In this document: positions 38,304 through 46,798 of the stretch, in pieces
Numbering within the stretch: the stretch's first letter is position 1
Layout: every line of letters starts with the position of its first letter
Assembly: GCA_030295235.1 (NCBI GenBank)
Contig: AP026133.1
Location: forward strand, 62,001 to 126,000
Direction: 5' to 3'
Length of the DNA stretch: 64,000 nucleotides
From: Fistulifera solaris
Lineage: Eukaryota > Bacillariophyta > Bacillariophyceae > Naviculales > Stauroneidaceae
Made by a program: the position numbers and the translations under genes
Notes under the pieces: model-generated
Databases searched by the model: none
What the model was told of the DNA's origin: nothing
Seen by the model: the letters and a program-made list of their open reading frames with translations, nothing else

Positions 38304-41300
38304 TCAAACATCAGTTACTGTTTCTGCTGTTTCAGAAATCCCGTCATTTGATCCTTTGGCTATCCATTCTGTTTGCTTCGAATCGCCTGCAGCTGTTGTA
38401 TCCAAGACTTGTCTTTTTCCAGAATCGACAAAAGCAAAGCGCCAAGCACGATGAGTCGCGGCGGGCGGATGATCGGCGGCACACGTCAATACAGGGAATC
38501 CACAGAGTGAAATGGTAGCAACCGCACTCACACCAAAAGTCTCTTGTCCATCCCCATCATCATCATCACCTTCGTCAGCATCACGTAATTTTATTGATAT
38601 CTTTGCCACAGCTCCTAAAAGTTCCAACAGTTCTTGTTGCGGGTGTTGGATCTGATCCTCATTTCCAATGACCGTTTAGAGAATAGGATGCAACACTTCT
38701 TGCTCGCGTGCACTCCGGCCGTACATCCTCCATCAACAAAGATGGCTCAACACGGCTTCGACTATATCTGCCAAGGCCTTGGGAGGCTGCGTGCTCCAAA
38801 TACCGCGATTCTCCCGGTTTACGCTGGCCCAATATGCTTCAATACGACCCGGTAAGGTGGCATCGTGATGACGCAGGTAACGGTGCCATCCCATCCGGCA
38901 GGCCAGAAACGCCAAAGTCGAATTGCAAACAAACTGTTTTTCAAAATTCACCATGTCGCCCGACCGACATACCATCCTCCTTCGTGTCACTGTATTGATC
39001 AAAGATCCACAACCGGGCCGTAGCGACAAGACAGCATCACCGATCCACTCCAAGCGTTCGTAGGCCGGCGACATGCACGTCCAAACATGTGGGATGTGTG
39101 AAGGCTTCGAGCAATAAAGCAGGGCGTCACGAAGCGCAATATAACCAGTCTCTTGCGATATAGTCTGTTCCAACAATGCAGAAGCAAATCGCGTTCCATT
39201 CATGACTTCGGTTATGCGATATGGAAGGATCCCATTCTAACGTCAAACCCAGTTCATCGGCCACGCCGGACGGGCGGCTTGATAACCACCACAACGCACA
39301 TAAACCCGAGTATAGCTTCTATCACATCGGCTAAAATCTTGCCACGGGGTGCCTTGATATTACTTTTTGTGCTAGAACTTTCACTGAATACCAACTTCAT
39401 GACGTGCACGGTGTCCATCGACCACGCCAAGTTCGGAGGTGAACAGAAATCGATCGATGGACAGCATAATGCAAGCTTCTTCCAAACGATCGTTGCAACA
39501 CAATGCGGATCGAATCACATCCAAATCTCCTTCGTGAAAGCCACGCATCCACGGTCGGAGGTGTGGAGATCGGAGACAGACATCCGTCAATACCAATTGT
39601 AAGACTGCATCACCCAACCATTCCCAGCGTTCATAATTTTCTTCAGCCCACACAACTAGCGGCTGTCAAAAGAGTGGCAATCTCAGTGTCTGTACTGTGC
39701 TCTTCAAGGCATTGGGCCAAAAGGGAAGATGCTTGCGACAATGCTCAACAAATGCCCGTGTAATTTGTATTCGCTCCAGGAAGTACAAGCATTGCGGTAA
39801 CAACAACGCCTCAAGATACAAAGCAGCGTCTGCCAGGGGGAGCTTCGCTGAATATACATTTCGGAAGCATTCGTCCTTTCAAAAAAGGGCAGATGGGAAC
39901 CTTAGATTGATTGTCATTTGAGTGGGTCGCTCCCTCACATGAACCGCGATTTTTATGCAAGATAGTGATAGGAAGTTGCCAACAGTATTGACAGAAGAAA
40001 GAATCATCTATGGCATCAACGTTTTTATCCGTCTGAAATCCACCACCATACACCAAAAAGACGCCTCATCGGATCATGATCCGGAATCCAGAGTCGAGGA
40101 CGGACGAGAGGTTGCACATTTGACACTTGCTGAGCCGCTGCTTTCAACTCAGCAGCATCACGCTTGCTTTCATTAATGATACTTTGCATGTACATCCACT
40201 CCAAGTTGTGCTGAGCATCTACGCAGCCCACCACATAGGGAGGAGTTATCATTGATTGGTTCAATTCAGCGGAGTTCAAAGACGCCATCCTTGGTCCGTT
40301 TCTTCCAGCGAGCATTAAAAAGAACTACAAAAATTCACGGAGAAGCCTGATCTGGCTTTTGGTACACTGAATCGGGCACCGCTTTTCATGGAACATGTCA
40401 ATCGACCAAACTGAGGATGGTCATGTTGCATGACGGACATCTCTTTAGGTTCCAGTAGCGGTTCGAAACATACTAAGGCCAAGGATCTACCGAAATTGCC
40501 AAGCGCTTTGCGCGTTTCATCTAGTCTCTCTCCTTCCATGCAAAGTATACCGATGTAGCACGTCGTTTTATCAGTCAAAGACGGCAGGGAAAACATTCTC
40601 GGTCTAGTTGCCACATTGTTCTTGTTCGGTCTTGGCTTGACGAAGGATAGGATCTTCTGGCGGAGTTCAGCTCTTGAAAACGGCAACAATCGATGAGACA
40701 ATAACCCATTCTTGTGCAAGCGAACACATGCGATCAATGCCAGCATCTTTTGCTTATCTTTTTTCGGCATGGCAAGAGTCGATTCGGGAAGCGAGATGGA
40801 CCGCAAACCATTTCCAGCTCCACAGTATGCCGGCAGTGTGAGCTGGTTGCTCTGTTCGTCGAAGAAAGGCAAATATCGACTGCAAGGCGCGTTTTGATGA
40901 TCGTGTCACCCAGTCAATGGGCTGGCTCAGGGCAAAGCGATACAATAAAGACTTGGCCGAATTCAAAAAGACAGCACCGAAGTTCTGCCGTGTAGCTCCC
41001 ATTCGCGCAACACAAGTAGCTCTTCTGTGGTGAGCTCTTTGTTTTGCGTTACATCGAGAAAAGTCAAACCAGACAAACCGGCCGTGATATATCTCCTCTT
41101 GCTTCCTACTTTCATTTGCCACAGCATTCTGGATGCGCTTCTCCAGGCGGCTGGCTTGTTCTGTATTCAAACCAGTGACGTGATCATTTTCAAAGAAATA
41201 AAACTTGGCTCTTTTGTCGAGCTCGCCCTTTCATTTGAATGTAGCTCTTGATTGTCGTCAATGCATCAAACGCAATGACAAACGAACAGGCTTGTAAATC

Positions 41301-42880
41301 AACACCTTCTTCCACCACGGAAGTGGCCACCAGTACATTGAACGTTCCTTTCGCAAACCATCCAGCGTTTCTCGAATATTGTTTTTCTTCCTCTTTCATC
41401 AACTGCGTCTGTTGATTCATCTCTTCCTCGCGAAAGCTTGGCACCGGCACAAAACATTTGGCTTCCCGTACTTTTTCGAATCATACTGCAACATCGAATC
41501 AGGAGTTGATGCGGCATTCGTCCCTCCCAGCTCATGATGTCGTCTTCGGCATCCGCAAATTGACCATTTAATTTCTCATGATGGGCTTGCTGCAAGCCGT
41601 TCTTCTTTGTTGCTCATTCCAATGTTGAAAATACTGATCCAAAGCACAAGCCGTGATCCGACGCTGCACAAAGACGACCCCCACGGCATGCTTCGTGCGC
41701 GACAATTCTTGTTCCAGCAACTGTTTGAGGCATTGCAATTTGTGACTGATGCAATGAATTTCACGACATGCCGCCACAAGCTCCAAATACTGTTGTGCCG
41801 CTTGAAATTGGTCTCGTGTTTCGTGCTGATATTGATTCCGTTTCAATTGCAGTGATCGACAATACCATATCACCGGCAAAGGCCCCAAATCCACTTCTAA
41901 TTGTTCCAATTGTTTGAATTCTTTGAGACGCTCGGATGCAAATCGTCCGAGGGAATCCGGCAAAGGACTTTTCGCAACACCACTCGGCATCCGGTAAGAG
42001 ATGCAATGTTCGAACATTCCTGTTCATGAAAGCGACTGTCTTGATCATTCACCGGGGGTGCGACAATCTTGGCATCCATTTGGACTTCCAGTTGCCGTCA
42101 AGAATTGTGTCAATTGTTCTTCAGTATGATTGACTTTGACAGCAATCAAAGGCGAGGCTGTCAATCCCAACACGCGTGGTCTCTGATGTTGTGGTAACGT
42201 ATGATAATAATCGCGCAAAATCATCGCTGCACGGAGAATTCCCAATACAATGATGACATTCATCCAAGATCAATAAACTGACTTGCCCAAGAGAATACTG
42301 ATCGGGATAATGTCGCAACAAATCCAAATATCGCCCGTGAGTCGCCACCAAGATTTTACTTGAGGTTTCTTCCGTGACGCGATGCAACGTGATATACACG
42401 CCAATTGCACCTGGTCCAAATGCACACTCAAGACGGCATGTTGTTGCACCGCCAAGGCGACACTGGGCACCAAAAAGACCATGGATCGTTGTTGATTGAC
42501 ATAGTGTTGCAATAACAAAAGTGCAATCCACGTCTTCCCGGTACCGGTGCCTAAATGAACAATGATGTTTTCGTGTTTGGCACGTTCAAACAAACTGCGT
42601 TGATAGGAACGTGGATCGTGTGTGGTTTTCAAGAGAGAATTCATCCACTTGTCGTGTTCCGTGTCATCATCCAGTGTCGTGTGTTTGGTTTTCTTATTGA
42701 CGGACAGCACAGGATCGGCCGAACGATGTTTGATTTTCTCATTCATGATCTTTAACACTTTGTGCAAATTGTCTTCGACACTTTTTTGAATCTGAGAAAC
42801 ATCTTCCCGGCCGTCACTGAGGTTTCAAAGAGGAATTGTCGAACATCCTCATGTAACGAAAAATGTGGATGATGATTCAT
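38304..42880 (-). CDS. Dicer-type ribonuclease III (DECH helicase, DUF283, two RNase III domains)
   Basis: Cleaves long dsRNA into small RNAs. About 1,520 aa in at least eight reading-frame fragments (breaks near 42820, 42420, 42240, 42083, 42007, 41612, 41435 and 41210, with more downstream). Order: helicase motif [22 protein letters not shown] box [25 protein letters not shown]; helicase-[33 protein letters not shown] and [14 protein letters not shown]; Dicer dimerisation/DUF283 fold [20 protein letters not shown]; about 340 residues that could hold platform/PAZ; RNase IIIa [19 protein letters not shown] with [15 protein letters not shown]; RNase IIIb [13 protein letters not shown] with [14 protein letters not shown]. 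Catalytic Glu/Asp of both RNase III centres are present. Start: ATG 42880 ([13 protein letters not shown]). Head to head with Argonaute. Frame breaks are mostly single bases and probably errors. Confidence 0.88.
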
Positions 42881-46500: not shown

Positions 46501-46798
46501 ACAGCAGCCATTCGGAGCACCTAGTGGTACGTTGGTGGAAGGCTTCCAAGGTTTGGCGTCATCACACCTTCTATATCAATGGAAGAGCTCCGCCGTTTAG
46601 CACCCCCAAGCCGGTCCGGCTTCATTACAGTTCACCGTGATGCTGGTCTAGCTCGAGTTGATATTCCATCCCTGACTTGGTCGTCGTGTCACAACTACGC
46701 CAAATTGGGCAGGTCCCGTCAAGCTTCCTGCACCAACACAGTACGCACAAGTTAGCCGAGCTGGCGGGAAATATGCCGGACCATGGTGGCTCGATTAG
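43543..46798 (+). CDS. Argonaute (RGG N-terminus, PAZ, MID, PIWI)
   Basis: Small-RNA-guided effector of RNA silencing. Exon 1 43543-43589 starts MHRGGRGGRENRGGRG; intron 43590-43690; the RGG-rich tail continues. Later introns include about 44131-44175, 44453-44528, 45618-45692 and 45851-45926. Landmarks: LPYKYPIRYECGG; linker KAYRCNFNL; PAZ-type stretch CYPVVDLLFDHS, YFATRKKMKLKYPSAKP, SNIFLPAELV; MID end YPVVKMILAQNGYISQ; PIWI first Asp LVGVDVFHAPRVF, second Asp NLADGIGEGAL, AYIVCQKRIATKFF, His in KPVRLHYS, and C-terminal LPAPTQYAQ ending near WWLD. About 950 aa. At least eight single-base frame breaks (for example near 43815, 45228, 46235, 46350, 46640, 46712), each with immediate resumption in a new frame. 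The catalytic Asp and His positions seem kept, so slicing is possible. Confidence 0.88.

What the first reader, a model, noticed from the sequence alone, without database searches (positions are those of the whole stretch)
38304..46798. Head-to-head Dicer and Argonaute genes: a compact RNA-interference locus
The two core RNAi enzymes lie back to back with 662 bp between start codons. Dicer shows a DECH helicase, helicase-C, DUF283-like fold and two RNase III centres. Argonaute shows an RGG tail, PAZ, MID and PIWI landmarks. Linkage suggests joint transcription of processor and effector from one bidirectional promoter. Core RNAi genes are usually unlinked in eukaryotes, and diatom Dicer-like genes are often described as divergent, so a multidomain Dicer paired with Argonaute stands out.
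Basis: partly seen in the sequence, partly recalled or inferred. Interest (0 to 1): 0.92.

Follow-up and report, generated by a model that had tools for sequence, protein, structure and literature searches.

The report
Paired Dicer and PIWI genes, diatom
In a marine diatom, the gene for the enzyme that cuts double-stranded RNA sits back to back with the gene for a PIWI-like partner that would use the pieces, and the same pair is found on a second, related chromosome.

Summary
The window lies in the genome of the allopolyploid diatom Fistulifera solaris (published primers match exactly). Minus strand 42880-38304: pieces of a Dicer (helicase, helicase C, sub-threshold DUF283, two RNase III). Plus strand from 43543: pieces of an Argonaute, ending near 46836. 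Exactly 662 bp lie between the start codons (650 bp in the second copy). Both genes' frames are broken many times, so neither protein reads whole.

The same head-to-head pair stands on homoeologous contig C7, which argues against local misassembly; PIWI is legible only there.

A small unrooted tree agrees but cannot tell the PIWI clade from its stem. Papers say two model diatoms lack canonical Dicers and Piwi-like proteins (PMC3145265, passage).

Shared regulation is not shown, synteny in other diatoms could not be tested, and although assembly error best explains the breaks, gene decay is not excluded.

The parts
42273..42880 (-). Dicer N-terminus and first half of the DEAD/ResIII helicase (Walker A region GTGTGKT); start codon at 42878-42880; the frame changes within the stretch
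   Evidence: Pfam DEAD 5.9e-9, ResIII 7.8e-9; best PDB matches are Dicer-like protein 4, AncD1D2 and Dicer homolog 1, with RIG-I lower; start codon
42124..42585 (-). Dicer helicase, second half with the DECH motif
   Evidence: Pfam DEAD 1.3e-6; LILDECHHC in the translation
41193..41480 (-). Dicer helicase C-terminal domain
   Evidence: Pfam Helicase_C 1.3e-12
40318..40905 (-). Dicer_dimer (DUF283) region and the start of the stretch where platform/PAZ would lie
   Evidence: Pfam Dicer_dimer 0.00021, 21.7 bits against a cut-off of 23.7; no PDB match to its two-sequence profile
39814..40324 (-). Dicer stretch between DUF283 and RNase IIIa, conserved between the two copies, no recognised domain; PAZ not found
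   Evidence: two pieces with no Pfam match; piece 40028-40324 is 75% identical between homoeologs; no PDB match
39264..39665 (-). Dicer RNase IIIa, motifs [10 protein letters not shown] and KILADVIEA present, in two different frames
   Evidence: Pfam 4e-10 on 39384-39665, profile 1-69 of 102; motifs read
38736..39236 (-). Dicer RNase IIIb, motifs [10 protein letters not shown] and KALADIVEA present
   Evidence: Pfam 2e-11, profile 1-94 of 102; motifs read
38304..38675 (-). Dicer C-terminal tail up to the stop; no dsRNA-binding domain found
   Evidence: only one chance-level Pfam match, E 0.19
42881..43542 (.). 662-bp spacer between the two start codons; alignable to the 650-bp spacer of C7, with shared words of up to 17 bases
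43543..43860 (+). Argonaute first two exons with an RGG-rich N-terminal tail (intron boundaries read by eye)
43950..44451 (+). Argonaute N-terminal exons, boundaries by eye; no N-domain match
44527..45616 (+). Argonaute exon with the PAZ domain
   Evidence: Pfam PAZ 1.8e-11 on piece 44499-45260; 11 of 11 PDB sequences matched at E up to 0.1 are Piwi proteins, best 24.1 bits
45694..46836 (+). Argonaute MID/PIWI exons, frame broken here; homologous to the 302-aa PIWI frame of C7
   Evidence: DNA match to C7; C7 piece Piwi 4.7e-25; end read

Best explanation
The locus is a divergent gene pair of Fistulifera solaris: one gene for a helicase-bearing Dicer and one for a PIWI-like Argonaute with its catalytic residues kept. 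Most likely mechanism: the Dicer loads on double-stranded RNA (hairpins, overlapping transcripts or RdRP products) through its helicase, cuts it with the two RNase III centres into small duplexes, and the PIWI-like protein takes one strand as guide and silences matching RNA or chromatin, for example transposons. Shown here: the domains, their order, the retained RNase III motifs in both copies and PIWI residues in the C7 copy, the 662-bp and 650-bp spacers, and the presence of the pair on two homoeologous contigs. Inferred: that each protein is made from one gene, that both are expressed, that the PIWI-like protein receives the products of this Dicer, and that the shared spacer regulates both genes.
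For: Domain matches in canonical Dicer order on raw pieces. On C7, RNase IIIa and about three quarters of RNase IIIb (profile 1-76 of 102) lie in one 422-aa frame, 6.5e-29; the end of IIIb with its second motif is in another frame. PIWI on C7 lies in one 302-aa frame, 4.7e-25. RNase III E-D and D-E motifs can be read in both copies, partly in different frames. In the C7 PIWI piece D, E, D and H align with Piwi proteins (the role of these residues is recalled). The pair is collinear on C7 at 81% and 83% DNA identity. Piecewise dN/dS between copies is 0.19 (Argonaute) and 0.29 (Dicer), against 0.52 for the Dicer region on the wrong strand; no wrong-strand control was run for the Argonaute. On the frame-tolerant path the Dicer sense strand scores 6360 with 22 stops, the wrong strand 5485 with 80. 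PIWI-like: with the PIWI piece, 11 Piwi proteins and HrAgo1 outscore all 23 Ago sequences among 35 matches; PAZ exon, 11 of 11 Piwi; 8-sequence tree, Ago against Piwi split supported at 91. RdRP matches lie on C5/C6 and C34/C35.
Against: Neither protein reads whole in either copy. On the best-scoring path Dicer has 29 frame breaks in the window copy and 21 in C7, and the Argonaute exons 8 and 9. The C7 PIWI frame is free of stops but holds short stretches that look out of frame beside the window copy. Small-indel density here (12.3 and 14.3 per kb) exceeds 13 of the 21 other matching blocks outside 47106-47729. PAZ and a C-terminal dsRBD were not found in the Dicer, and DUF283 is below its cut-off. 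The Piwi tree is small, unrooted and long-branched, and the three animal Piwi proteins group without the locus protein (support 73). There is no expression or small-RNA evidence.
Confidence: 0.65

Rival explanations
1. The two genes are neighbours by history alone. The head-to-head order has no regulatory meaning; the genes are real and work in RNA silencing, each from its own promoter. (Compatible with the identities given in the best explanation; it denies only the shared control.)
For: The flanking genes are collinear between C7 and the window too, so retention of the pair in both subgenomes is no independent sign of selection. The spacer length seems unremarkable for a compact genome (inference; no genome-wide spacer lengths were measured).
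Against: Chance adjacency of a Dicer with one of two Argonautes is rare (my estimate, about 4 in 10,000, from 9007 homoeologous gene pairs, PMC5935921 passage; about a quarter of that head to head), though the pair was picked out after the fact. The spacer aligns far above shuffles (112.5 against -81.4, sd 8.3), but shared descent alone would give that.
Confidence: 0.45
2. Both copies are decaying pseudogenes; the indels are real.
For: Frame breaks in both homoeologs at a density above 13 of 21 other matching blocks; 13 and 9 in-frame stops on the best path in Dicer. dN/dS of the pair (0.19, 0.29) is higher than that of the three neighbour readings taken as coding (0.11-0.14).
Against: In the Argonaute exons there are 17 breaks but only one stop in each copy, and 821 of 893 residues are identical. 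Eleven of the 22 Dicer stops fall in the bins 40050-40349 in both copies, which looks like a shared frame change or intron rather than decay. Three 150-bp bins keep 96% amino acid identity although each holds two indels. Catalytic motifs survive in both copies. An HSP70 gene on C9 of this assembly also changes frame without room for an intron while its C10 counterpart does not.
Confidence: 0.15
3. The helicase part and the RNase III part are two adjacent genes, as in Thalassiosira pseudonana, where a helicase protein and an RNase III protein are separate.
For: No single frame joins them here; T. pseudonana has separate proteins (PMC3155517 and PMC4156623, passages). A cluster of stops at 40050-40349 is shared by both copies.
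Against: Helicase, helicase C, DUF283-like and RNase III follow each other in Dicer order on one strand, with conserved coding-like sequence throughout. F. cylindrus is reported to have them fused (passage).
Confidence: 0.12
4. The effector belongs to the Ago clade or branches outside both clades, and the Piwi match reflects the narrow sample of PDB sequences.
For: Long branch (1.87), 8 sequences, no outgroup, and the three animal Piwi proteins group without it at support 73. Papers report AGO-like and no Piwi-like proteins in two model diatoms (passages). The PAZ matches are weak (best 24.1 bits).
Against: Two separate domains prefer Piwi proteins; identities over aligned PIWI columns are 30.8-31.0% to three Piwi proteins against 27.4% and 24.4% to AGO2 and AGO10; the Ago against Piwi split puts it with Piwi at support 91.
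Confidence: 0.25

Closest known systems
Fragilariopsis cylindrus Dicer-like protein 242149 (PMC4156623, passage read)
   Different: That one carries an N-terminal DNA methyltransferase; here the N-terminus starts at the helicase, 662 bp from an Argonaute gene. Whether its gene neighbours an Argonaute is not known to me.
Phaeodactylum tricornutum and Thalassiosira pseudonana Dicer-like and AGO-like proteins (PMC4247016, PMC3155517, PMC3145265; passages)
   Same: Diatom RNA-silencing set: RNase III pair, one Argonaute, RdRPs
   Different: Reported there as lacking a canonical Dicer and Piwi-like proteins; here the helicase lies in order with two RNase III domains, and the linked Argonaute is Piwi-like. 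The second, unlinked Dicer-like gene of this genome resembles the T. pseudonana PAZ plus two RNase III protein more.
Ciliate Dicer-dependent PIWI pathway (Tetrahymena Dcl1p with Twi1p; recalled)
   Same: PIWI-clade effector thought to be fed by a Dicer
   Different: No linkage known to me there; here linkage is seen but the feeding is inferred
Dicers of solved structure (PDB 7eld, 9kby, 7vg2)
   Same: The three best PDB matches of the RNase III frame; 9kby and 7eld are among the best of the helicase piece
   Different: No recognisable PAZ or C-terminal dsRBD in the pieces scanned here

Membership tests
Dicer | N-terminal DEAD/ResIII helicase with helicase C domain | tested here: met
   top PDB matches are Dicers
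Dicer | DUF283 / Dicer dimerisation domain | tested here: inconclusive
   21.7 bits against cut-off 23.7, in the expected place
Dicer | PAZ domain between DUF283 and RNase IIIa | tested here: inconclusive
   no match in pieces 40318-40905, 40028-40324 and 39814-40065, or by profile to PDB; piece 39669-39878 was not scanned; frames are broken, so a divergent PAZ could be missed
Dicer | two RNase III domains with E-D and D-E catalytic motifs | tested here: met
   window pieces; C7 frame of 422 aa with IIIa and profile 1-76 of IIIb; motifs read, partly in different frames
Dicer | C-terminal dsRNA-binding domain | tested here: not met
   no such Pfam match in 38307-38675; not a universal feature of Dicer-like proteins (diatom and other examples), so filing as Dicer family is kept
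Dicer | all domains in one polypeptide | not testable with these tools
   no transcripts; frames broken in both copies
Argonaute, PIWI clade | PAZ domain | tested here: met
   1.8e-11; 11 of 11 PDB matches at E up to 0.1 are Piwi proteins
Argonaute, PIWI clade | PIWI domain | tested here: met
   on the C7 homoeolog, 4.7e-25, profile 42-299 of 302; not detected on the broken window letters
Argonaute, PIWI clade | DEDH catalytic residues (recalled) | tested here: met
   C7 piece aligns at IDVYH, GQE, RDG and YAH; not claimed for the window copy, whose frame breaks there
Argonaute, PIWI clade | groups inside PIWI rather than AGO proteins | tested here: inconclusive
   with Piwi against Ago at support 91, but unrooted, 8 sequences, and outside the three animal Piwi proteins (73); bit scores favour Piwi
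Argonaute, PIWI clade | binds small RNAs | not testable with these tools
   needs immunoprecipitation and sequencing
Co-regulated divergent gene pair (bidirectional promoter) | short shared spacer between start codons | tested here: met
   662 bp and 650 bp
Co-regulated divergent gene pair (bidirectional promoter) | coordinated transcription driven by the spacer | not testable with these tools
   no expression data

The most novel reading that the evidence does not exclude
Diatoms possess a Dicer-fed PIWI pathway whose cutter and effector are encoded as one divergent module under a shared promoter. The catalytic silencing Argonaute of this lineage would be the PIWI-clade one, while the unlinked second Argonaute has lost catalytic residues. 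That would join the Dicer and PIWI branches, which are separate in animals (recalled).
Probability: 0.25. Interest if true: 0.75.

Novelty: new variant of a known kind. Interest (0 to 1): 0.5.

Why it matters
If true, it gives a ready hypothesis, and one short spacer to test, for how an abundant group of algae couples small-RNA production to its use. It contrasts with statements in print that two model diatoms lack canonical Dicers and Piwi-like proteins (passages). It makes an ancestral link of Dicer to PIWI-like proteins testable in a species with published genome editing (PMC13276009, passages). Even if the linkage is accidental, a helicase-bearing Dicer and a PIWI-like Argonaute in this oil-producing diatom are useful to know for anyone planning RNAi there.

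Tried and rejected
Misassembly: rejected as the main explanation, because the pair recurs on contig C7.

Relatives elsewhere: one scan of IMG/VR (9 stretches matched a pattern, none confirmed) and one of the GTDB genomes (29 stretches, none confirmed) with the 302-aa PIWI piece found none; neither collection is meant to hold diatoms. So synteny in other diatoms is untested.

PAZ in Dicer: Pfam on three pieces and two profile searches of PDB gave nothing; a fourth piece (39669-39878) stood in failed and was not given again.

Homopolymer origin of the indels: among 40 single-base indels in the Dicer stretch and 16 in 43950-46799 (introns included), runs of four bases are over-represented (0.15 against 0.04, and 0.19 against 0.06 background) and other run lengths are not: a weak signal.

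Literature: in the listings, and in the passages read, from searches I saw no report of linked Dicer and Argonaute genes in diatoms; one search listed 25 of 30 papers. The general search 59 matched 140 papers at four of six terms, of which I saw only the 15 listed titles and abstract openings. Only openly licensed papers are held. A clustering of Dicer and Argonaute genes in Chlamydomonas is something I half remember; the search for it found no paper and the look-up was not held, so it is not used.

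Full report
What was checked. The window is G000:C8:62001-126000 of a 51.7-Mb, 61-contig assembly. A guide target of the F. solaris apt genes (PMC13276009, passages) occurs exactly twice, on C38 and C39. Of 12 further published primers and guides looked for in those two loci, the 5 specific to gene g10415 are found exactly and only in the C38 locus, the 6 specific to g510 only in the C39 locus, and the shared one in both. The species is therefore Fistulifera solaris, described as allopolyploid with 42 homoeologous chromosome pairs of 75% overall homology (PMC5935921, passage).

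The pair. The Dicer start codon lies at 42878-42880 on the minus strand and the Argonaute start at 43543, so 662 bp separate them. Pfam on raw pieces gives, from the Dicer start onward, DEAD/ResIII, a second DEAD piece, Helicase_C, a sub-threshold DUF283 match, RNase IIIa and RNase IIIb, and PAZ on the other strand. In one search the order along the gene puts Helicase_C (41193-41480) before DUF283 (40318-40905), as in Dicers. The best solved matches of the helicase piece are Dicers, and those of the RNase III frame are Dicer homolog 1 and Dicer-like 3 and 4.

The second copy. Contig C7 carries the same pair head to head, collinear with the window at 81% (Dicer) and 83% (Argonaute) DNA identity, within a longer collinear block. 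Its spacer is 650 bp. On C7, RNase IIIa and profile positions 1-76 of RNase IIIb lie in one 422-aa frame; the end of IIIb, with its second motif, is in another frame. PIWI lies in one 302-aa frame, which is free of stops but has short stretches that look out of frame beside the window copy. All this argues against a misassembled junction. Because the flanks are collinear too, it is one ancestral arrangement kept twice, not two independent events.

The effector is PIWI-like. With the 302-aa piece, 35 PDB sequences match at E up to 0.01; the top 12 are 11 Piwi proteins and HrAgo1, and all 23 Ago sequences score lower (best Ago 30.1 bits, best Piwi 63.8). The PAZ exon from the window matches 11 sequences at E up to 0.1, all Piwi, weakly (best 24.1 bits). 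Over aligned PIWI columns it is 30.8-31.0% identical to three Piwi proteins, 27.4% to AGO2 and 24.4% to AGO10. In a tree of 8 PIWI pieces it stays with the Piwi proteins against AGO2, AGO10 and the second Argonaute (support 91), on a long branch; the three Piwi proteins group without it (73). The tree has no outgroup, so membership of the PIWI clade proper, as against its stem, is open. The residues D, E, D, H align with Piwi proteins (that these are the slicer residues is recalled).

The rest of the silencing set. The genome has a second Argonaute pair on C25/C26. The H of YAH is replaced in both copies, and RDG is changed in C25; the C26 piece does not cover that position. In the tree this second Argonaute lies on the Ago side, but its best single PDB match is Drosophila Piwi (27.1 bits, AGO2 23.8; that 6kr6 is from Drosophila is recalled). 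The genome also has a second tandem-RNase III gene on C19/C20, with a PAZ match at 1.4e-5, below cut-off, a weak Dicer_dimer match (0.026) and no helicase match in the two pieces scanned. A further RNase III match lies on C27/C29, and RdRP matches on C5/C6 and C34/C35. As far as these searches show, the second Argonaute and the second Dicer-like gene lie on different contigs and are not neighbours.

The broken frames. Neither gene reads whole in either copy. On a best-scoring path the Argonaute exons, first exon left out and boundaries set by eye, have 8 breaks in the window and 9 on C7, one stop each, and 821 of 893 residues identical. Dicer has 29 and 21 breaks, 13 and 9 stops, and 1238 of 1488 identical; read on the wrong strand it has 42 and 38 stops and 1132 of 1490 identical. 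Eleven of the 22 Dicer stops fall in the bins 40050-40349 in both copies, which suggests an unrecognised intron or shared frame change; three bins keep 96% amino acid identity with two indels each, while the two bins at 94% have none. Piecewise dN/dS is 0.19 for Argonaute and 0.29 for Dicer, 0.52 for a wrong-strand control of the Dicer region, 0.11-0.14 for three neighbour stretches on the strand with the lower ratio, and 0.38 for the mixed stretch 47000-49000 on the minus strand.

Indel density. Indels of 1-2 bp run at 12.3 and 14.3 per kb at the pair and 15.8 in the next block (47106-47729). Of the 21 other matching blocks, 13 have 0-6.5 per kb and 8 have 8.8-25.5; which of these are coding was not settled. 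An HSP70 gene on C9 also changes frame without room for an intron (matches at C9:323881-324147 and C9:322880-323911 overlap) where its C10 counterpart does not. I take the breaks as mostly consensus errors, dense in this stretch for unknown reasons. Decay is not excluded.

Regulation. The spacer aligns between the homoeologs at 74% of ungapped columns (score 112.5 against -81.4, sd 8.3, best -51.5, in 200 base shuffles) with shared words of 17 bases at 43026 and 43381. This shows homology, not a promoter. No test of joint transcription was possible.

Against the literature. Passages read say that P. tricornutum and T. pseudonana lack canonical Dicers and Piwi-like proteins (PMC3145265; PMC4247016 for Piwi), and that F. 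cylindrus has a methyltransferase-helicase-RNase III fusion (PMC4156623). Searches showed no paper on linked Dicer and Argonaute genes in diatoms; the one paper holding Fistulifera, Dicer and Argonaute names these genes for Chaetoceros tenuissimus (PMC8613185, passages). Only openly licensed papers are held. The papers opened were read as passages only.

Verdict. A real, duplicated, head-to-head pair of a Dicer and a PIWI-like Argonaute: members of known families in an arrangement I did not find described, with a plausible but unproven shared function and promoter.

Noticed in passing
window 37252-47729 against C7: Small 1-2 bp indels between the homoeologs are dense here (12-16 per kb), as in 8 of the 21 other matching blocks, against 0-6.5 per kb in the remaining 13; breaks fall in both copies of the pair; cause unknown.
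   Followed up: partly
L039 (C25) and L040 (C26): A second, unlinked Argonaute pair, on the Ago side in a small tree though its best PDB match is a Piwi, with the catalytic H replaced in both copies and RDG changed in C25.
   Followed up: partly
L041 (C19) and L042 (C20): A second Dicer-like gene: sub-threshold PAZ and tandem RNase III, no helicase match in the two pieces scanned.
   Followed up: partly
window 32077-34128 (-): A 684-aa open frame, 97% identical in protein over 644 aa to the C7 copy, with no Pfam match at E up to 0.1.
   Followed up: no
window 21373-23184 and 26900-28114 (+): Two Na/Pi-cotransporter frames on the same strand about 4 kb apart that cross-match the same C7 blocks, likely a tandem duplication.
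   Followed up: no
window 59096-61234 (-) and 62072-64000 (+): Two divergent ankyrin-repeat frames, open in the window, with few small indels against C7 (1.4 and 1.3 per kb); the C7 counterpart of the first is split into two overlapping frames.
   Followed up: no
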